Assembly: GCF_001894805.1 (NCBI RefSeq)
Contig: NZ_BCWX01000001.1
Span: forward strand, 806,001-870,000
Reading direction: 5' to 3'
Length of the DNA: 64,000 nucleotides
Origin: Rhodococcus globerulus NBRC 14531
GTDB lineage: Bacteria; Actinomycetota; Actinomycetes; Mycobacteriales; Mycobacteriaceae
In this document: positions 8,973 through 15,971 of the stretch, piece by piece
Layout of the letters: every line of letters starts with the position of its first letter
Numbering within the stretch: position 1 is the stretch's first letter
Position numbers and translations under genes: made by a program
The notes under the pieces: generated by a model
Told to the model about the DNA's origin: nothing
What the model saw: the letters and a program-made list of their open reading frames with translations, nothing else
Databases searched by the model: none

Positions 8973-9719
8973 ATGACACGCACCAACGATGAACGCGCGG
9001 CGATCGAGATCGCCGCTGCGGCTGGAGAACTTCTGCTCGAACACCGGAAATCCCTCGGTGCGAACGACGTCGATGCCGCGACTTTCAAGGACGCTGCCGA
9101 TCGGCTCAGTCACGACTTCATCGTCGCCGAACTTGCCCGACGCTTCCCCGCGGATGCGGTGCTGTCGGAGGAAGGCGCTGACGACCTCGCGAGGTTGAAT
9201 GCGGATCGGGTGTGGATCGTCGACCCGCTCGACGGCACCCGCGAATACGGAGAAGCCGGCCGATCGGATTGGGCCGTGCATGTCGCACTGACCGAAAACG
9301 GTGTCCTCACAACAGGTGCGGTCGCGATGCCTGCCCTCGGCGTCACCTATGCAAGTAGTGATGATCGAACCGATCGCGGCGCTACGACGCCGGTACGCGT
9401 CGTCGTGTCGCGGACGCGGCGTCCGGAACCGGTCATGCGAATGGCTGACTCGATGGGCGCGGAGCTGATCGAGATGGGCTCTGCCGGCGCCAAAGCGATG
9501 GCGGTTGTATCCGGAGAAGCAGATATCTATGCACATGCGGGTGGGCAGTACGAGTGGGATTCGGCGGCCCCTGTTGCCGTCGCACGCGCTGCGGGACTGC
9601 ATGTTTCGCGTATCGACGGCAGCGAACTTCGCTACAACCAGGAAAACCCGTGGCTGCCGGATCTGCTGATCTGCCGACCTGAACTCGCCCCGAAAGCACT
9701 GGAGGAACTGGGCCGATGA
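8973..9719 (+). CDS. cysQ: 3'-phosphoadenosine 5'-phosphate phosphatase CysQ (inositol monophosphatase family)
   Basis: CysQ hydrolyses PAP, the inhibitory by-product of PAPS use, to AMP, and in actinobacteria may also act on PAPS or inositol phosphates. The 248-aa protein has the metal-binding motifs of the IMPase fold: LSEEGADD (Glu ligand, about residues 67-74), WIVDPLDGTREYG (about 84-96) and the C-terminal YEWDSAAPVAVARAAG. The ATG is preceded by TGGAG at 5 bases. It overlaps cysD by ATGA and is the first gene after a TetR-type operator region. Its place before both PAPS-making genes and a sulfotransferase fits PAP removal in a sulfation pathway. Confidence 0.92.
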   Translation: MTRTNDERAAIEIAAAAGELLLEHRKSLGANDVDAATFKDAADRLSHDFIVAELARRFPADAVLSEEGADDLARLNADRVWIVDPLDGTREYGEAGRSDWAVHVALTENGVLTTGAVAMPALGVTYASSDDRTDRGATTPVRVVVSRTRRPEPVMRMADSMGAELIEMGSAGAKAMAVVSGEADIYAHAGGQYEWDSAAPVAVARAAGLHVSRIDGSELRYNQENPWLPDLLICRPELAPKALEELGR

Positions 9720-10621
9720 CCACGACACTGACGCACCTCGAACGACTCGAAGCCGAGAGCATTCACATCATGCGTGAAGCTGCCTCGCAGAGCGAGAACC
9801 CGGTGATGCTGTACTCGGTGGGCAAGGACTCCGCCGTGATGCTGCATCTGGCACGCAAGGCGTTCTACCCGTCGAAGCTGCCGTTTCCGCTGCTGCACGT
9901 CGACACCACGTGGAAGTTCCGCGAAATGTACAAACTTCGTGACAGTACCGCTGCTGCAGGCGATCTCGATCTGATCGTCTACACCAATCCGGACTGCGTC
10001 AGGCAGGGGATCAACCCGTTCACTCACGGCTCGGCCGTCCATACCGACATGTGGAAAACCGAAGGCCTCAAACAAGCCCTCGATCACTACAAGTTCGACG
10101 CGGCGTTCGGCGGCGCCCGCCGTGACGAAGAAAAATCCCGCGCCAAGGAACGGATCTTCTCGATCCGATCGGCAGCGCACCGCTGGGATCCGAAGCAGCA
10201 GCGACCGGAGCTGTGGCGGATGTACAACGTCCGCAAAGCGCCGGGTGAAAGCCTGCGCGTCTTCCCGCTCTCGAACTGGACCGAACTGGATGTGTGGGAA
10301 TACATACGCCAGGAAGAGATTCCGATCGTTCCGCTGTATTTCGCCGACAAGCGTCCCGTCGTCGAACGTGACGGCGCCCTGATCATGGTCGACGACGACC
10401 GGATGCCCTTGTTGCCGGGAGAAACTCCGGAACTCAAGAGCGTCCGTTTCCGTACTCTCGGCTGCTATCCGCTGACCGGTGCCGTCGAATCGACCGCCAC
10501 CAGCTTGACCGAGATCATCTCGGAAATGTTGCTCACCACCACCTCCGAACGCCAGGGACGGGTCATCGACCACGACTCGAGTGCGTCGATGGAAAAGAAG
10601 AAGCAAGAAGGGTACTTCTGA
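9716..10621 (+). CDS. cysD: Sulfate adenylyltransferase subunit 2 CysD
   Basis: CysD, with the GTPase CysN, makes adenosine 5'-phosphosulfate (APS) from ATP and sulfate. The 301-aa protein belongs to the PP-loop ATP pyrophosphatase fold: MLYSVGKDSAVMLHLARKAF carries the PP motif, and the conserved AFGGARRDEEKSRAKER and PLSNWTELDVWEYI follow. The C-terminus (KKKQEGYF) is typical. It overlaps cysQ by ATGA and cysNC by one base (TGATG), so the three are very probably one translational unit. The family also includes rhizobial NodP, which serves sulfation rather than assimilation. Confidence 0.96.
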   Translation: MTTTLTHLERLEAESIHIMREAASQSENPVMLYSVGKDSAVMLHLARKAFYPSKLPFPLLHVDTTWKFREMYKLRDSTAAAGDLDLIVYTNPDCVRQGINPFTHGSAVHTDMWKTEGLKQALDHYKFDAAFGGARRDEEKSRAKERIFSIRSAAHRWDPKQQRPELWRMYNVRKAPGESLRVFPLSNWTELDVWEYIRQEEIPIVPLYFADKRPVVERDGALIMVDDDRMPLLPGETPELKSVRFRTLGCYPLTGAVESTATSLTEIISEMLLTTTSERQGRVIDHDSSASMEKKKQEGYF

Positions 10622-14874: not shown

Positions 14875-14909
14875 TTGCTCGAAAAATCTACTAGAACAAG
14901 GAGACTCAT

Positions 14910-15971
14910 ATGAACGCTACTTGGGAAAAGTTCTGCGCAGATCTGCTCGAGGTCGGGAAGGTCCTGGAGGACGAGATCGTTCCTCAGGATCCGCTGACGC
15001 AGGCCGAGGGCGTCCGCTACCTGAGTCGGTTGCTCCGCTACGGCACAATCAACTGTGTCGAGTACACCGATCCGCGGTGGCCGCAGTTCACGTCCGCACC
15101 GAACCCGAACATGATGACGAAGATCGGTGCCGACAACCCGGACAACGTCTACATGCGCGCCAACATCTCCGGTAAGTACAGCTACCGGATCATCGGCAGC
15201 CGGGGCACGGTTCCGCTGATCACGTTCGGTTCACGCATCAATCGGTACCACATCGACGGCACGATGCTGCAGACCGGCGACCTGCACATCCACGACCTCG
15301 AGGTTGACGAGAACGGCCGTTTCGAGTTCATCGCGAGCGTGGACAAGCCGGCGGAAGGTGCCTGGCTGCCGCTGGCGGCCGACAGCAATCTCATCTCCGT
15401 TCGACAGACGTATCGGGATCGACGCAACGAGGTACCCGGTGAGCTGAGCATCGAGTGCCTGAACCCGGACGGCGACTTCGAGCCGCTGAGTCCGGAAGAG
15501 TTGGGCGTGCGCCTGAGCAAGTCGGTCGGGATCGTGAAGGGGATGGCGGAGACCTTCCTCGAATGGTCGCGCAAATTCCAACCGCACACCAACGAGATCT
15601 TCGACTGGGGACAGGACTACTTCCAGAACGCCGGCGGCGATCCGACGATCTTCTACTTGCACGGGTACTGGAAGCTCGCCGAGGACGAGGCGTGGGTCAT
15701 CGAGACCGAAGTTCCGAACTGCGAGTACTTCAACTTCGTGCTGCAGAACTTCTGGGTGGAGTCGCTCGACTACAACCGGACGAACATCTACATCAACAAC
15801 CACACTGCAAAGCTCAACGACGACGGAACCCTGACAATCGTGGTGGCGGCAAAGGATCCGGGTTACGGCAACTGGATCAACACCGATTCGCACGCGGAGG
15901 GGACCTGGGCGATGCGCTGGATCAAGGCGGACTCCCACCCGATTCCGACGTCGAAGGTAATCAAGCTCTAA
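14910..15971 (+). CDS. DUF1214-domain protein
   Basis: 353 aa, with AAGGAG upstream of the ATG. The C-terminal third matches the DUF1214 pattern: NFVLQNFWVESLDY, INNHTAKLNDDGTLTIVVA, KDPGYGNWINTD and a Trp-rich end (GTWAMRWIKAD). The middle part is beta-rich. No signal peptide or membrane segment is seen. DUF1214 proteins are frequent in mycobacteria and rhodococci, often beside lipid or steroid genes, and have no settled activity. It is the last gene of the sulfation operon, 35 bp after the sulfotransferase; an inverted repeat follows 33 bp downstream. Confidence 0.82.
   Translation: MNATWEKFCADLLEVGKVLEDEIVPQDPLTQAEGVRYLSRLLRYGTINCVEYTDPRWPQFTSAPNPNMMTKIGADNPDNVYMRANISGKYSYRIIGSRGTVPLITFGSRINRYHIDGTMLQTGDLHIHDLEVDENGRFEFIASVDKPAEGAWLPLAADSNLISVRQTYRDRRNEVPGELSIECLNPDGDFEPLSPEELGVRLSKSVGIVKGMAETFLEWSRKFQPHTNEIFDWGQDYFQNAGGDPTIFYLHGYWKLAEDEAWVIETEVPNCEYFNFVLQNFWVESLDYNRTNIYINNHTAKLNDDGTLTIVVAAKDPGYGNWINTDSHAEGTWAMRWIKADSHPIPTSKVIKL

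What the first reader, a model, noticed from the sequence alone, without database searches (positions are those of the whole stretch)
8973..15971. Candidate dedicated sulfation operon: PAPS synthesis, PAP removal and a sulfotransferase in one unit
Seen: cysQ, cysD and cysNC overlap each other, then NTF2-like, SDR, sulfotransferase and DUF1214 genes follow on the same strand with gaps of 40 bp or less and no terminator. Known: CysDNC make PAPS, sulfotransferases use it, CysQ destroys the inhibitory PAP; rhizobial NodPQ-NodH shows the same logic. No cysH or sulfite reductase genes lie here, so sulfate assimilation is not the obvious purpose. Inference: the cell makes a sulfated small molecule whose carbon skeleton is processed by the SDR and NTF2-like enzyme. 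I know of no described Rhodococcus product from such a cluster.
Basis: partly seen in the sequence, partly recalled or inferred. Interest (0 to 1): 0.75.

Follow-up and report, generated by a model that had tools for sequence, protein, structure and literature searches.

The report
Steroid-linked sulfation operon with private sulfate donor
A soil-type bacterium carries a self-contained set of genes that makes activated sulfate and hands it to one sulfotransferase; relatives of its other enzymes sit in bacterial steroid-breakdown gene clusters, which hints at a sulfation step in breakdown pathways that has not turned up in the papers searched.

Summary
Observation right: cysQ-cysD-cysNC-SnoaL-SDR-sulfotransferase-DUF1214 at 8973-15971, gaps -7 to +40 bp, behind a divergent tetR and three copies of one palindrome. 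The genome has four cysD; the assimilatory one (with cysH and sulfite reductase, without cysC) is elsewhere. All three APS kinases and all three Sulfotransfer_3 genes found in the genome share three loci, so PAPS is made where sulfotransferases are. The 12 loci with the nearest sulfotransferases (61% identity or more), in nine different settings, all keep tetR, cysD, cysNC, sulfotransferase and the palindrome. 'A sulfated product whose skeleton the SDR processes' is possible; the better lead is catabolic. DUF1214-SDR-sulfotransferase homologues lie beside 3-ketosteroid 9-alpha-hydroxylase (KshA) in 24 of 24 mycobacterium-like loci examined and after hsaA-hsaC-hsaB in another genome. A second sulfotransferase of this genome pairs with an alkylsulfatase-like gene; that pair is kept in 4 of 4 relatives, beside KshA and KstD in two. 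But none of the 12 loci, nor this genome's three, was found next to steroid genes: the substrate is inferred. Best reading: a TetR-controlled sulfation step in breakdown or inactivation of a hydroxylated, steroid-like compound. Boldest: sulfate as leaving group.

The parts
8107..8718 (-). TetR-family regulator, divergent from the operon (longer start at 8784 possible)
   Evidence: TetR_N E 1.7e-15 for the longer form; only its DNA-binding end resembles KstR; present in 12 of 12 type A loci
8759..8775 (.). Palindrome AATGAACGTCGTTCATT, probable TetR operator 1
   Evidence: perfect site in the whole-genome pattern search; conserved place in type A loci
8819..8829 (.). Palindrome core GAACATTGTTC, probable operator 2
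8837..8853 (.). Palindrome AATGAACATCGTTCATT, probable TetR operator 3
8973..9719 (+). cysQ-like 3'(2'),5'-bisphosphate nucleotidase (PAP removal, inferred)
   Evidence: Inositol_P 1.8e-37; TIGR01331 below cut-off; SEE, DPLDGT, WDSAA motifs (roles recalled)
9716..10621 (+). cysD, sulfate adenylyltransferase small subunit, of a kind common on proteobacterial plasmids
   Evidence: PRK12563 543 bits over cut-off; up to 77% identity to plasmid CysD
10621..12522 (+). cysNC, sulfate adenylyltransferase large subunit fused to APS kinase
   Evidence: PRK05506 1054 bits over cut-off, APS_kinase 2.6e-67
12547..12906 (+). SnoaL/NTF2-like protein
   Evidence: SnoaL_2 7.2e-11
12900..13691 (+). SDR oxidoreductase (PRK07890 subfamily)
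   Evidence: 355.8 bits over cut-off
13732..14874 (+). Sulfotransferase (Sulfotransfer_3), same family as solved 2zq5
   Evidence: PF13469 7.8e-54 (form from 13729); 2zq5 E 3e-120; R97, G99, H160 invariant in 20 homologues
14910..15971 (+). DUF1214 protein, partner of the sulfotransferase, activity unknown
   Evidence: PF06742 1.3e-6; solved 6ans E 1.4e-88; model mean pLDDT 83.1
16091..17704 (+). Family-5 solute-binding protein, possible accessory (in 4 of 12 type A loci)
   Evidence: SBP_bac_5 5e-67
17830..18705 (+). F420-type LLM oxidoreductase, possible accessory (in 6 of 12 type A loci)
   Evidence: TIGR03619 208.7 bits over cut-off (form from 17728); 49% identical to an LLM of the KshA region of L133

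Best explanation
A TetR-controlled sulfation operon that makes its own sulfate donor. Steps: (1) CysD with the CysN half makes APS from ATP and sulfate, the CysC half makes PAPS (enzyme families shown by sequence). (2) The sulfotransferase moves the sulfuryl group to a hydroxyl (family and conserved residues shown, substrate unknown). (3) CysQ removes the inhibitory PAP (inferred). (4) DUF1214, SDR and SnoaL act on the same compound before or after sulfation (inferred from linkage). (5) A ligand, probably substrate or an intermediate, releases TetR from the palindromes in front of cysQ and derepresses the operon (inferred). The likely substrate is a hydroxylated steroid-like or other polycyclic/isoprenoid compound being degraded or inactivated, because homologues of sulfotransferase, SDR and DUF1214 form a fixed triad in ketosteroid-catabolic clusters of other actinobacteria.
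For: PAPS where sulfotransferases are: four cysD, one cysH; APS kinase three times and Sulfotransfer_3 three times, each in the same three loci; the assimilatory CysN has no kinase domain and its neighbours are cysH and NIR_SIR sulfite reductase; that CysH bears CCALRKVAPL, SIGCAPCTS and KTECGLH, the signatures PMC8557817 gives for APS reductases (passages). Unit: TetR, CysD, CysNC and ST in 12 of 12 loci with ST of 61% identity or more, SnoaL 11, SDR 11, DUF1214 11, CysQ 10, in nine different settings. Regulation: GAACN3GTTC in or at the edge of the gap between tetR and the first operon gene in 12 of 12, and before tetR at C10; three perfect sites in 6.73 Mb, two here, one 72 bp before an LLM gene. 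Wider linkage: cysD within about 10 kb of 57 of 80 ST loci, DUF1214 in 77, SDR in 77. Other phylum: DUF1214-ST-VOC-cysQ-cysD-cysNC in Paraburkholderia sprentiae, ST-SDR next to cysQ-cysN-cysD in Sphingomonas paeninsulae. Steroid link: KshA next to the triad in 24 of 24 g2 loci examined; HsaA, HsaC, HsaB over cut-off directly before the triad in L136, KshA there by 4qdc/2zyl; [quoted passage not shown]
Against: None of the 12 type A loci and none of this genome's three ST loci has a steroid gene of my query set beside it; only 5 of the 80 loci do. The type A DUF1214 is only 22-26% identical to the triad's, and the triad's falls just under the Pfam cut-off at C6 and in Tsukamurella (22.0 and 22.3 of 25 bits). 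The KstR likeness of TetR is confined to the DNA-binding end. CysQ is below the curated CysQ cut-off. The assimilatory CysH passes the model named phosphoadenylyl-sulfate reductase (263 of 154 bits) and misses the APS-reductase model by 1.3 bits; if it did use PAPS, assimilation would have to draw on these loci. No transcript, metabolite or enzyme data.
Confidence: 0.6

Rival explanations
1. Biosynthesis: the operon builds and keeps or exports a sulfated small molecule or lipid, whose skeleton SDR, SnoaL and LLM tailor (the first reader's view, like NodPQ-NodH or the R. qingshengii cysN2C-cysD2-stf0 locus).
For: PAPS plus sulfotransferase plus CysQ is also the logic of known sulfated-product clusters; IGTS8 CysN2C-CysD2-Stf0 is read by its authors as serving sulfated metabolites (PMC8557817, passages).
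Against: No PKS, NRPS, terpene synthase or glycosyltransferase among the genes of the conserved unit; the triad's homologues lie in degradation clusters in the genomes; a TetR regulator and, in 4 of 12 loci, a solute-binding protein fit an incoming compound.
Confidence: 0.2
2. Detoxification: an incoming phenolic or steroid-like xenobiotic is sulfated as an end product and leaves the cell as the conjugate.
For: TetR with conserved sites, the same unit in nine different settings; sulfotransferases conjugate alcohols and phenols in general (recalled).
Against: No efflux pump in the conserved unit; the usual company of SDR, SnoaL and DUF1214 suggests further chemistry; KshA/Hsa company of the homologues is catabolic.
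Confidence: 0.25
3. Spare or sulfur-starvation assimilation genes with unrelated neighbours, or PAPS supply for a PAPS-using CysH.
For: CysD and CysN also serve assimilation in many bacteria; the assimilatory CysH passes the model named phosphoadenylyl-sulfate reductase and its own locus has no CysC.
Against: No cysH or sulfite reductase here; the assimilatory set is at C2; its CysH carries the APS-reductase cysteine signatures; the sulfotransferase travels with cysD-cysNC in 12 of 12 type A loci.
Confidence: 0.04

Closest known systems
Mycobacterial DUF1214-SDR-sulfotransferase triad (Rv3531c-Rv3530c-Rv3529c) in the cholesterol region (that 2zq5 is Rv3529c/STF1, and that the g2 genomes are mycobacteria, is recalled or inferred)
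   Same: Same three families, sulfotransferase 47-51% identical, gene order fixed
   Different: No cysD or cysNC in the 24 stretches examined, beside KshA; DUF1214 only 22-26% alike; order DUF1214-SDR-ST instead of SDR-ST-DUF1214
Rhizobial NodPQ-NodH (recalled)
   Same: CysD/CysNC of a similar kind feeding one sulfotransferase
   Different: No NodH-like sulfotransferase or Nod-factor backbone genes; Sulfotransfer_3 with DUF1214, SDR, SnoaL and TetR
Rhodococcus qingshengii IGTS8 cysN2C-cysD2-stf0 (PMC8557817, passages)
   Same: Second sulfate-activation complex with fused APS kinase beside a sulfotransferase, apart from assimilation
   Different: Sulfotransferase named Stf0 by the authors, order cysN2C-cysD2-stf0; DUF1214, SDR, SnoaL and CysQ not named in the passages seen
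CurM/OLS sulfotransferase domains (PMC3903477, passages)
   Same: Relatives about 30-31% identical are annotated as type I PKS in Planktothrix; in CurM/OLS the sulfate put on a beta-hydroxyl is lost as a leaving group
   Different: Part of a PKS making terminal alkenes; no operon likeness; that the Planktothrix proteins are OLS/CurM was not tested

Membership tests
Dedicated PAPS/sulfotransferase cluster (NodPQ-NodH logic) | CysD, CysN and CysC encoded beside a sulfotransferase and apart from cysH/sulfite reductase | tested here: met
Dedicated PAPS/sulfotransferase cluster (NodPQ-NodH logic) | A PAPS-dependent sulfated compound | not testable with these tools
   needs 34S labelling and mass spectrometry
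NodH-type Nod-factor sulfation | NodH-like sulfotransferase and Nod backbone genes | tested here: not met
   sulfotransferase is Sulfotransfer_3 nearest to 2zq5 among solved structures; no backbone genes in the unit
2zq5-type sulfotransferase | Full-length similarity and conserved PAPS-loop and catalytic-type residues | tested here: met
   E 3e-120 over residues 4-378; R97, G99, H160, R252, S260 invariant in 20 sequences; role of these residues recalled
Ketosteroid-catabolic gene cluster | KshA, KstD, Hsa or sterol side-chain genes adjacent | tested here: not met
   none of the query set beside the window operon or the other 11 type A loci; the genome's five KshA-like genes lie elsewhere
Assimilatory sulfate reduction | cysH and sulfite reductase with the cysDN | tested here: not met
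   single cysH, at C2 with NIR_SIR
CysQ (PAP phosphatase) | Curated CysQ model cut-off | tested here: inconclusive
   TIGR01331 best hit but 125.3 of 228.8 bits; metal-site motifs present (recalled)

The most novel reading that the evidence does not exclude
Sulfation is a catabolic activation step: the cell spends PAPS to turn a poor leaving group (a hydroxyl of a steroid-like compound) into sulfate, which DUF1214 and/or SnoaL then help eliminate or, in the sister C10 module, an alkylsulfatase-like enzyme removes (possibly with inversion of the carbon), letting the SDR go on. This would be a missing reaction type in actinobacterial steroid degradation, spread as a PAPS-carrying cassette across phyla.
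Probability: 0.25. Interest if true: 0.85.

Novelty: new variant of a known kind. Interest (0 to 1): 0.62.

Why it matters
[quoted passage not shown] no step for them came up in the searches made. The window shows related genes joined to a private PAPS supply under one TetR, in what looks like an environmental Rhodococcus of the erythropolis group (the strain is not named), where 'what is sulfated, and why' can be asked with one derepressed strain. If sulfate serves as a leaving group in degradation, it would add a reaction type to steroid and terpenoid breakdown.

Tried and rejected
Rejected: spare assimilation genes (the CysH model result is the point left against this); chance neighbours; TetR as KstR (likeness only at the DNA-binding end). 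Led nowhere: Stf0 family search in the own genome, whose controls also found nothing. Paper searches: no paper with all terms; one (a sulfatase database, not opened); one search gave 28 papers with three of four terms, 25 listed, one opened (PMC8557817); one search gave 21 with three of four terms, 15 listed, none of those 15 with 'sulfotransferase', the other 6 not seen; one search gave 3, one opened by passage (PMC8882603, an unrelated host-signalling remark on Rv3529c); DUF1214/DUF1254 gave 5, none opened. Three steroid papers were searched for 'sulfotransferase' inside: 0 occurrences each. Fold search of the DUF1214 model did not run. Alignment A1 read four loci on the wrong strand and was dropped for A2. 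My first gene caller often chose antisense frames in this G+C-rich DNA; a codon-usage caller replaced it (on). Operator search in the ten named type A genomes (one mismatch): 9 of 10 have a match; matches outside the tetR gap only in L050's and L051's genomes, the latter beside genes that look ParB-like by eye but match no Pfam family, so the regulon beyond the operon is not established; the own genome's third site has no counterpart in the R. erythropolis genome of L049 at that setting. Mended on checking: flanks are shared by window/L049/L057 and by L053/L054; KshA and KstD lie by the C10-type pair in two of four relatives, not all; the CysH model result lowers my odds for a dedicated PAPS unit from about 0.9 to 0.85 and raises the assimilation rival from 0.03 to 0.04.
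Full report
Observation. The seven genes are present as described, with gaps of -4, -1, 24, -7, 40 and 35 bp. Two further + strand genes follow after 119 and 125 bp, a family-5 solute-binding protein and an LLM oxidoreductase. A tetR gene lies divergently at 8107-8718. Between tetR and cysQ lie three GAACN3GTTC palindromes, the only three in the window. Promoter and terminator pattern counts do not exceed chance, so they say nothing either way.

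Is PAPS made for sulfation only? The genome (6.73 Mb, 29 contigs, 99.98% complete) has four cysD and one cysH. The assimilatory set (C2) has cysN without a kinase domain, cysD, cysH and a NIR_SIR reductase. APS kinase was found three times and Sulfotransfer_3 three times: the window, C10 and C6, the same three loci. Sulfotransfer_1 gave only a weak hit on the C6 gene; the Stf0 search was uninformative, so other sulfotransferase families are not all excluded. The C2 CysH carries the three cysteine signatures that PMC8557817 (passages) gives for APS reductases without PAPS-reductase activity, but the family models are divided: it passes the model named phosphoadenylyl-sulfate reductase and misses the APS-reductase model by 1.3 bits. 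If CysH does use PAPS, assimilation would depend on these loci too.

Three loci, two kinds of PAPS cassette. Window and C10 CysD are 94% identical to each other but 46-47% to C2 and C6, while C6 is 61% to C2. In a quick tree of 67 CysD the 12 type A rows and C10 form one side of a fully supported branch. The window CysD is 74.7-77.2% identical to the 25 best of 344 matching plasmid records, nearly all alphaproteobacterial; PRK12563 is the best NCBIfam model for window and C10, but not for C2 and C6. The window/C10 cassette is thus of a kind common in proteobacteria; the NodP name is recalled, and the direction of transfer was not tested (20 Streptomyces plasmid records also match, identities not listed).

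Conservation. ST homologues at E 1e-60 or better occur in 81 of 298 genomes of the order. The ten nearest (L049-L058, 61-94% identity), the window and L142 are called type A. Over these 12: TetR 12, CysD 12, CysNC 12 (in L056 split over several frames, described only), sulfotransferase 12, SnoaL 11, SDR 11, DUF1214 11, CysQ 10, LLM 6, solute-binding protein 4. L051 (Nocardioides) has just TetR, CysD, CysNC, sulfotransferase and DUF1214; L056 lacks CysQ and DUF1214. Window, L049 and L057 share flanks, and so do L053 and L054; no other pair does at 45% identity, which leaves nine settings. GAACN3GTTC occurs one to three times in or at the edge of the gap before the first operon gene in all 12 and once before tetR at C10. 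The perfect site occurs three times in the genome: twice here and once 72 bp before an LLM gene (Bac_luciferase 9.8e-46) at C2; with up to two mismatches the pattern gave 6 matches per strand and its reversed control 2.

Wider module. Of the 80 loci, cysD lies within about 10 kb in 57 (10 of 10 type A, 47 of 70 others), DUF1214 in 77 and SDR in 77; some loci end at contig ends. The commonest other form (type B, as at C6) is DUF1214-SDR-sulfotransferase divergent from cysD-cysNC, with cysQ in 19 of the 70. Type B DUF1214 is a weak Pfam match (22.0 and 22.3 bits of 25 in two scanned), tied to the window's by blastp (29% identity, E 4e-33 for Tsukamurella). Type A sulfotransferases form one clade in a quick tree of 116. 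The combination recurs outside actinobacteria: DUF1214-sulfotransferase-VOC-cysQ-cysD-cysNC on a Paraburkholderia sprentiae plasmid (identities to the window: DUF1214 27%, sulfotransferase 35%, cysQ 52%, cysD 76%, cysNC 65%) and sulfotransferase-SDR beside cysQ-cysN-cysD, with a P450 nearby, in Sphingomonas paeninsulae. Of seven plasmid neighbourhoods opened, three list cysD near the sulfotransferase (Paraburkholderia, Tsukamurella, Sphingomonas) and four do not (Novosphingobium, Mycolicibacterium, Gloeothece, Planktothrix); these gene tables are incomplete.

Link to steroid catabolism. In all 24 loci of genus code g2 that I examined, DUF1214-SDR-sulfotransferase lies next to a KshA homologue; 23 of 24 also show HsaE/G/F, KstD or Ltp4 homologues (the other stretch is a 6.6-kb contig), and none shows cysD or cysNC. 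The 24 are one locus each from 24 of the 34 g2 genomes with a hit listed, single-contig genomes first and then in list order, so not a random sample. In L136, HsaA, HsaC and HsaB are over their curated cut-offs directly before the triad and KshA matches 4qdc/2zyl. In Williamsia L117 the triad lies between hsaACB and cysDNC-cysQ. In L067, L072 and L109 a P450, a SnoaL_4 gene and a thiolase-like gene flank it. But only 5 of the 80 loci (L067, L072, L101, L109, L117; L101 is nearly the same as L117) have genes of my steroid query set within 10 kb at 38% identity or more, none of them type A, and the own genome's five KshA-like genes are elsewhere. For the window the steroid reading rests on homology and linkage elsewhere, not on its own surroundings.

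A second clue: sulfotransferase plus sulfatase. The C10 sulfotransferase (27% to the window's) is followed by an alkylsulfatase-like metallo-beta-lactamase protein (Alkyl_sulf_dimr 5e-12, SdsA1 9.5e-12), with an SDR upstream on the same strand and an Old-Yellow-type reductase downstream. Close relatives of it (E 1e-120 or better) occur in 5 of 397 genomes of the order, this one included. In the other 4 of 4 the run sulfotransferase-alkylsulfatase-SDR is kept. Two of the four (L183, L186) also hold KshA and KstD (KshA_C; 7p18 E 1.4e-105); the other two (L184, L185) hold the Old-Yellow-type reductase instead (50-52%). None has cysD within the 18 kb taken. Adding and then removing sulfate makes sense if the ester is an intermediate. 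Sec-alkylsulfatases that invert the carbon are recalled, not tested.

Mechanism. Shown by sequence: enzymes for APS, PAPS and sulfuryl transfer, residues R97, G99, H160, R252 and S260 invariant in 20 sequences including the C10 enzyme (roles recalled), a conserved regulator with conserved sites. Inferred: PAP removal by CysQ (below the curated cut-off), one transcript, derepression by a ligand, the substrate class, and what DUF1214, SDR and SnoaL do. DUF1214 was modelled (mean pLDDT 83.1) and has a solved relative labelled uncharacterized (6ans); the fold search did not run. A precedent for sulfate as a leaving group is the cyanobacterial CurM/OLS sulfotransferase (PMC3903477, passages); relatives about 30-31% identical to the window's are annotated as type I PKS in Planktothrix.

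Verdict. Observation confirmed. A dedicated PAPS-sulfotransferase operon is well supported (about 0.85, lowered from 0.9 for the CysH result). A role in breaking down or inactivating a steroid-like or other polycyclic alcohol is the best current reading (0.6 for the statement as a whole), detoxification by conjugation 0.25, a sulfated natural product 0.2 (the readings overlap). Nothing like it was seen in print, which cover open-licence PMC papers only and of which I opened one.

Noticed in passing
L006 (own genome C10:84000-100000), 979-10218: Second PAPS cassette of the window kind (tetR, cysQ, cysD 94%, cysNC 81%, SnoaL) with a different sulfotransferase, an alkylsulfatase-like protein, SDR and an Old-Yellow-type reductase; the run sulfotransferase-alkylsulfatase-SDR is kept in 4 of 4 relatives, beside KshA and KstD in two of them.
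   Followed up: partly
L008 (own genome C6:160000-176000), 9823-11336: CysQ with about 120 extra C-terminal residues that look SnoaL/NTF2-like by eye (no Pfam match there), followed by a limonene-epoxide-hydrolase-family gene (LEH 1.1e-20).
   Followed up: no
own genome C2:1126798-1126814 (L154:9799): Third perfect copy of the operator palindrome, 72 bp before an LLM-family oxidoreductase gene 33% identical to the window's LLM: possible regulon member.
   Followed up: partly
L101 versus L117: The Kitasatospora arboriphila contig matches the Williamsia muralis locus gene for gene at nearly the same coordinates, suggesting contamination of that assembly or a very recent transfer.
   Followed up: no
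L050:13318-14403: A second DUF1214 gene (62% identical to the window's) downstream of the type A operon in Speluncibacter.
   Followed up: no
L056:6906-8799: cysNC of Nocardioides alcanivorans is split over several reading frames (broken gene or sequencing error); this locus also lacks cysQ and DUF1214.
   Followed up: no
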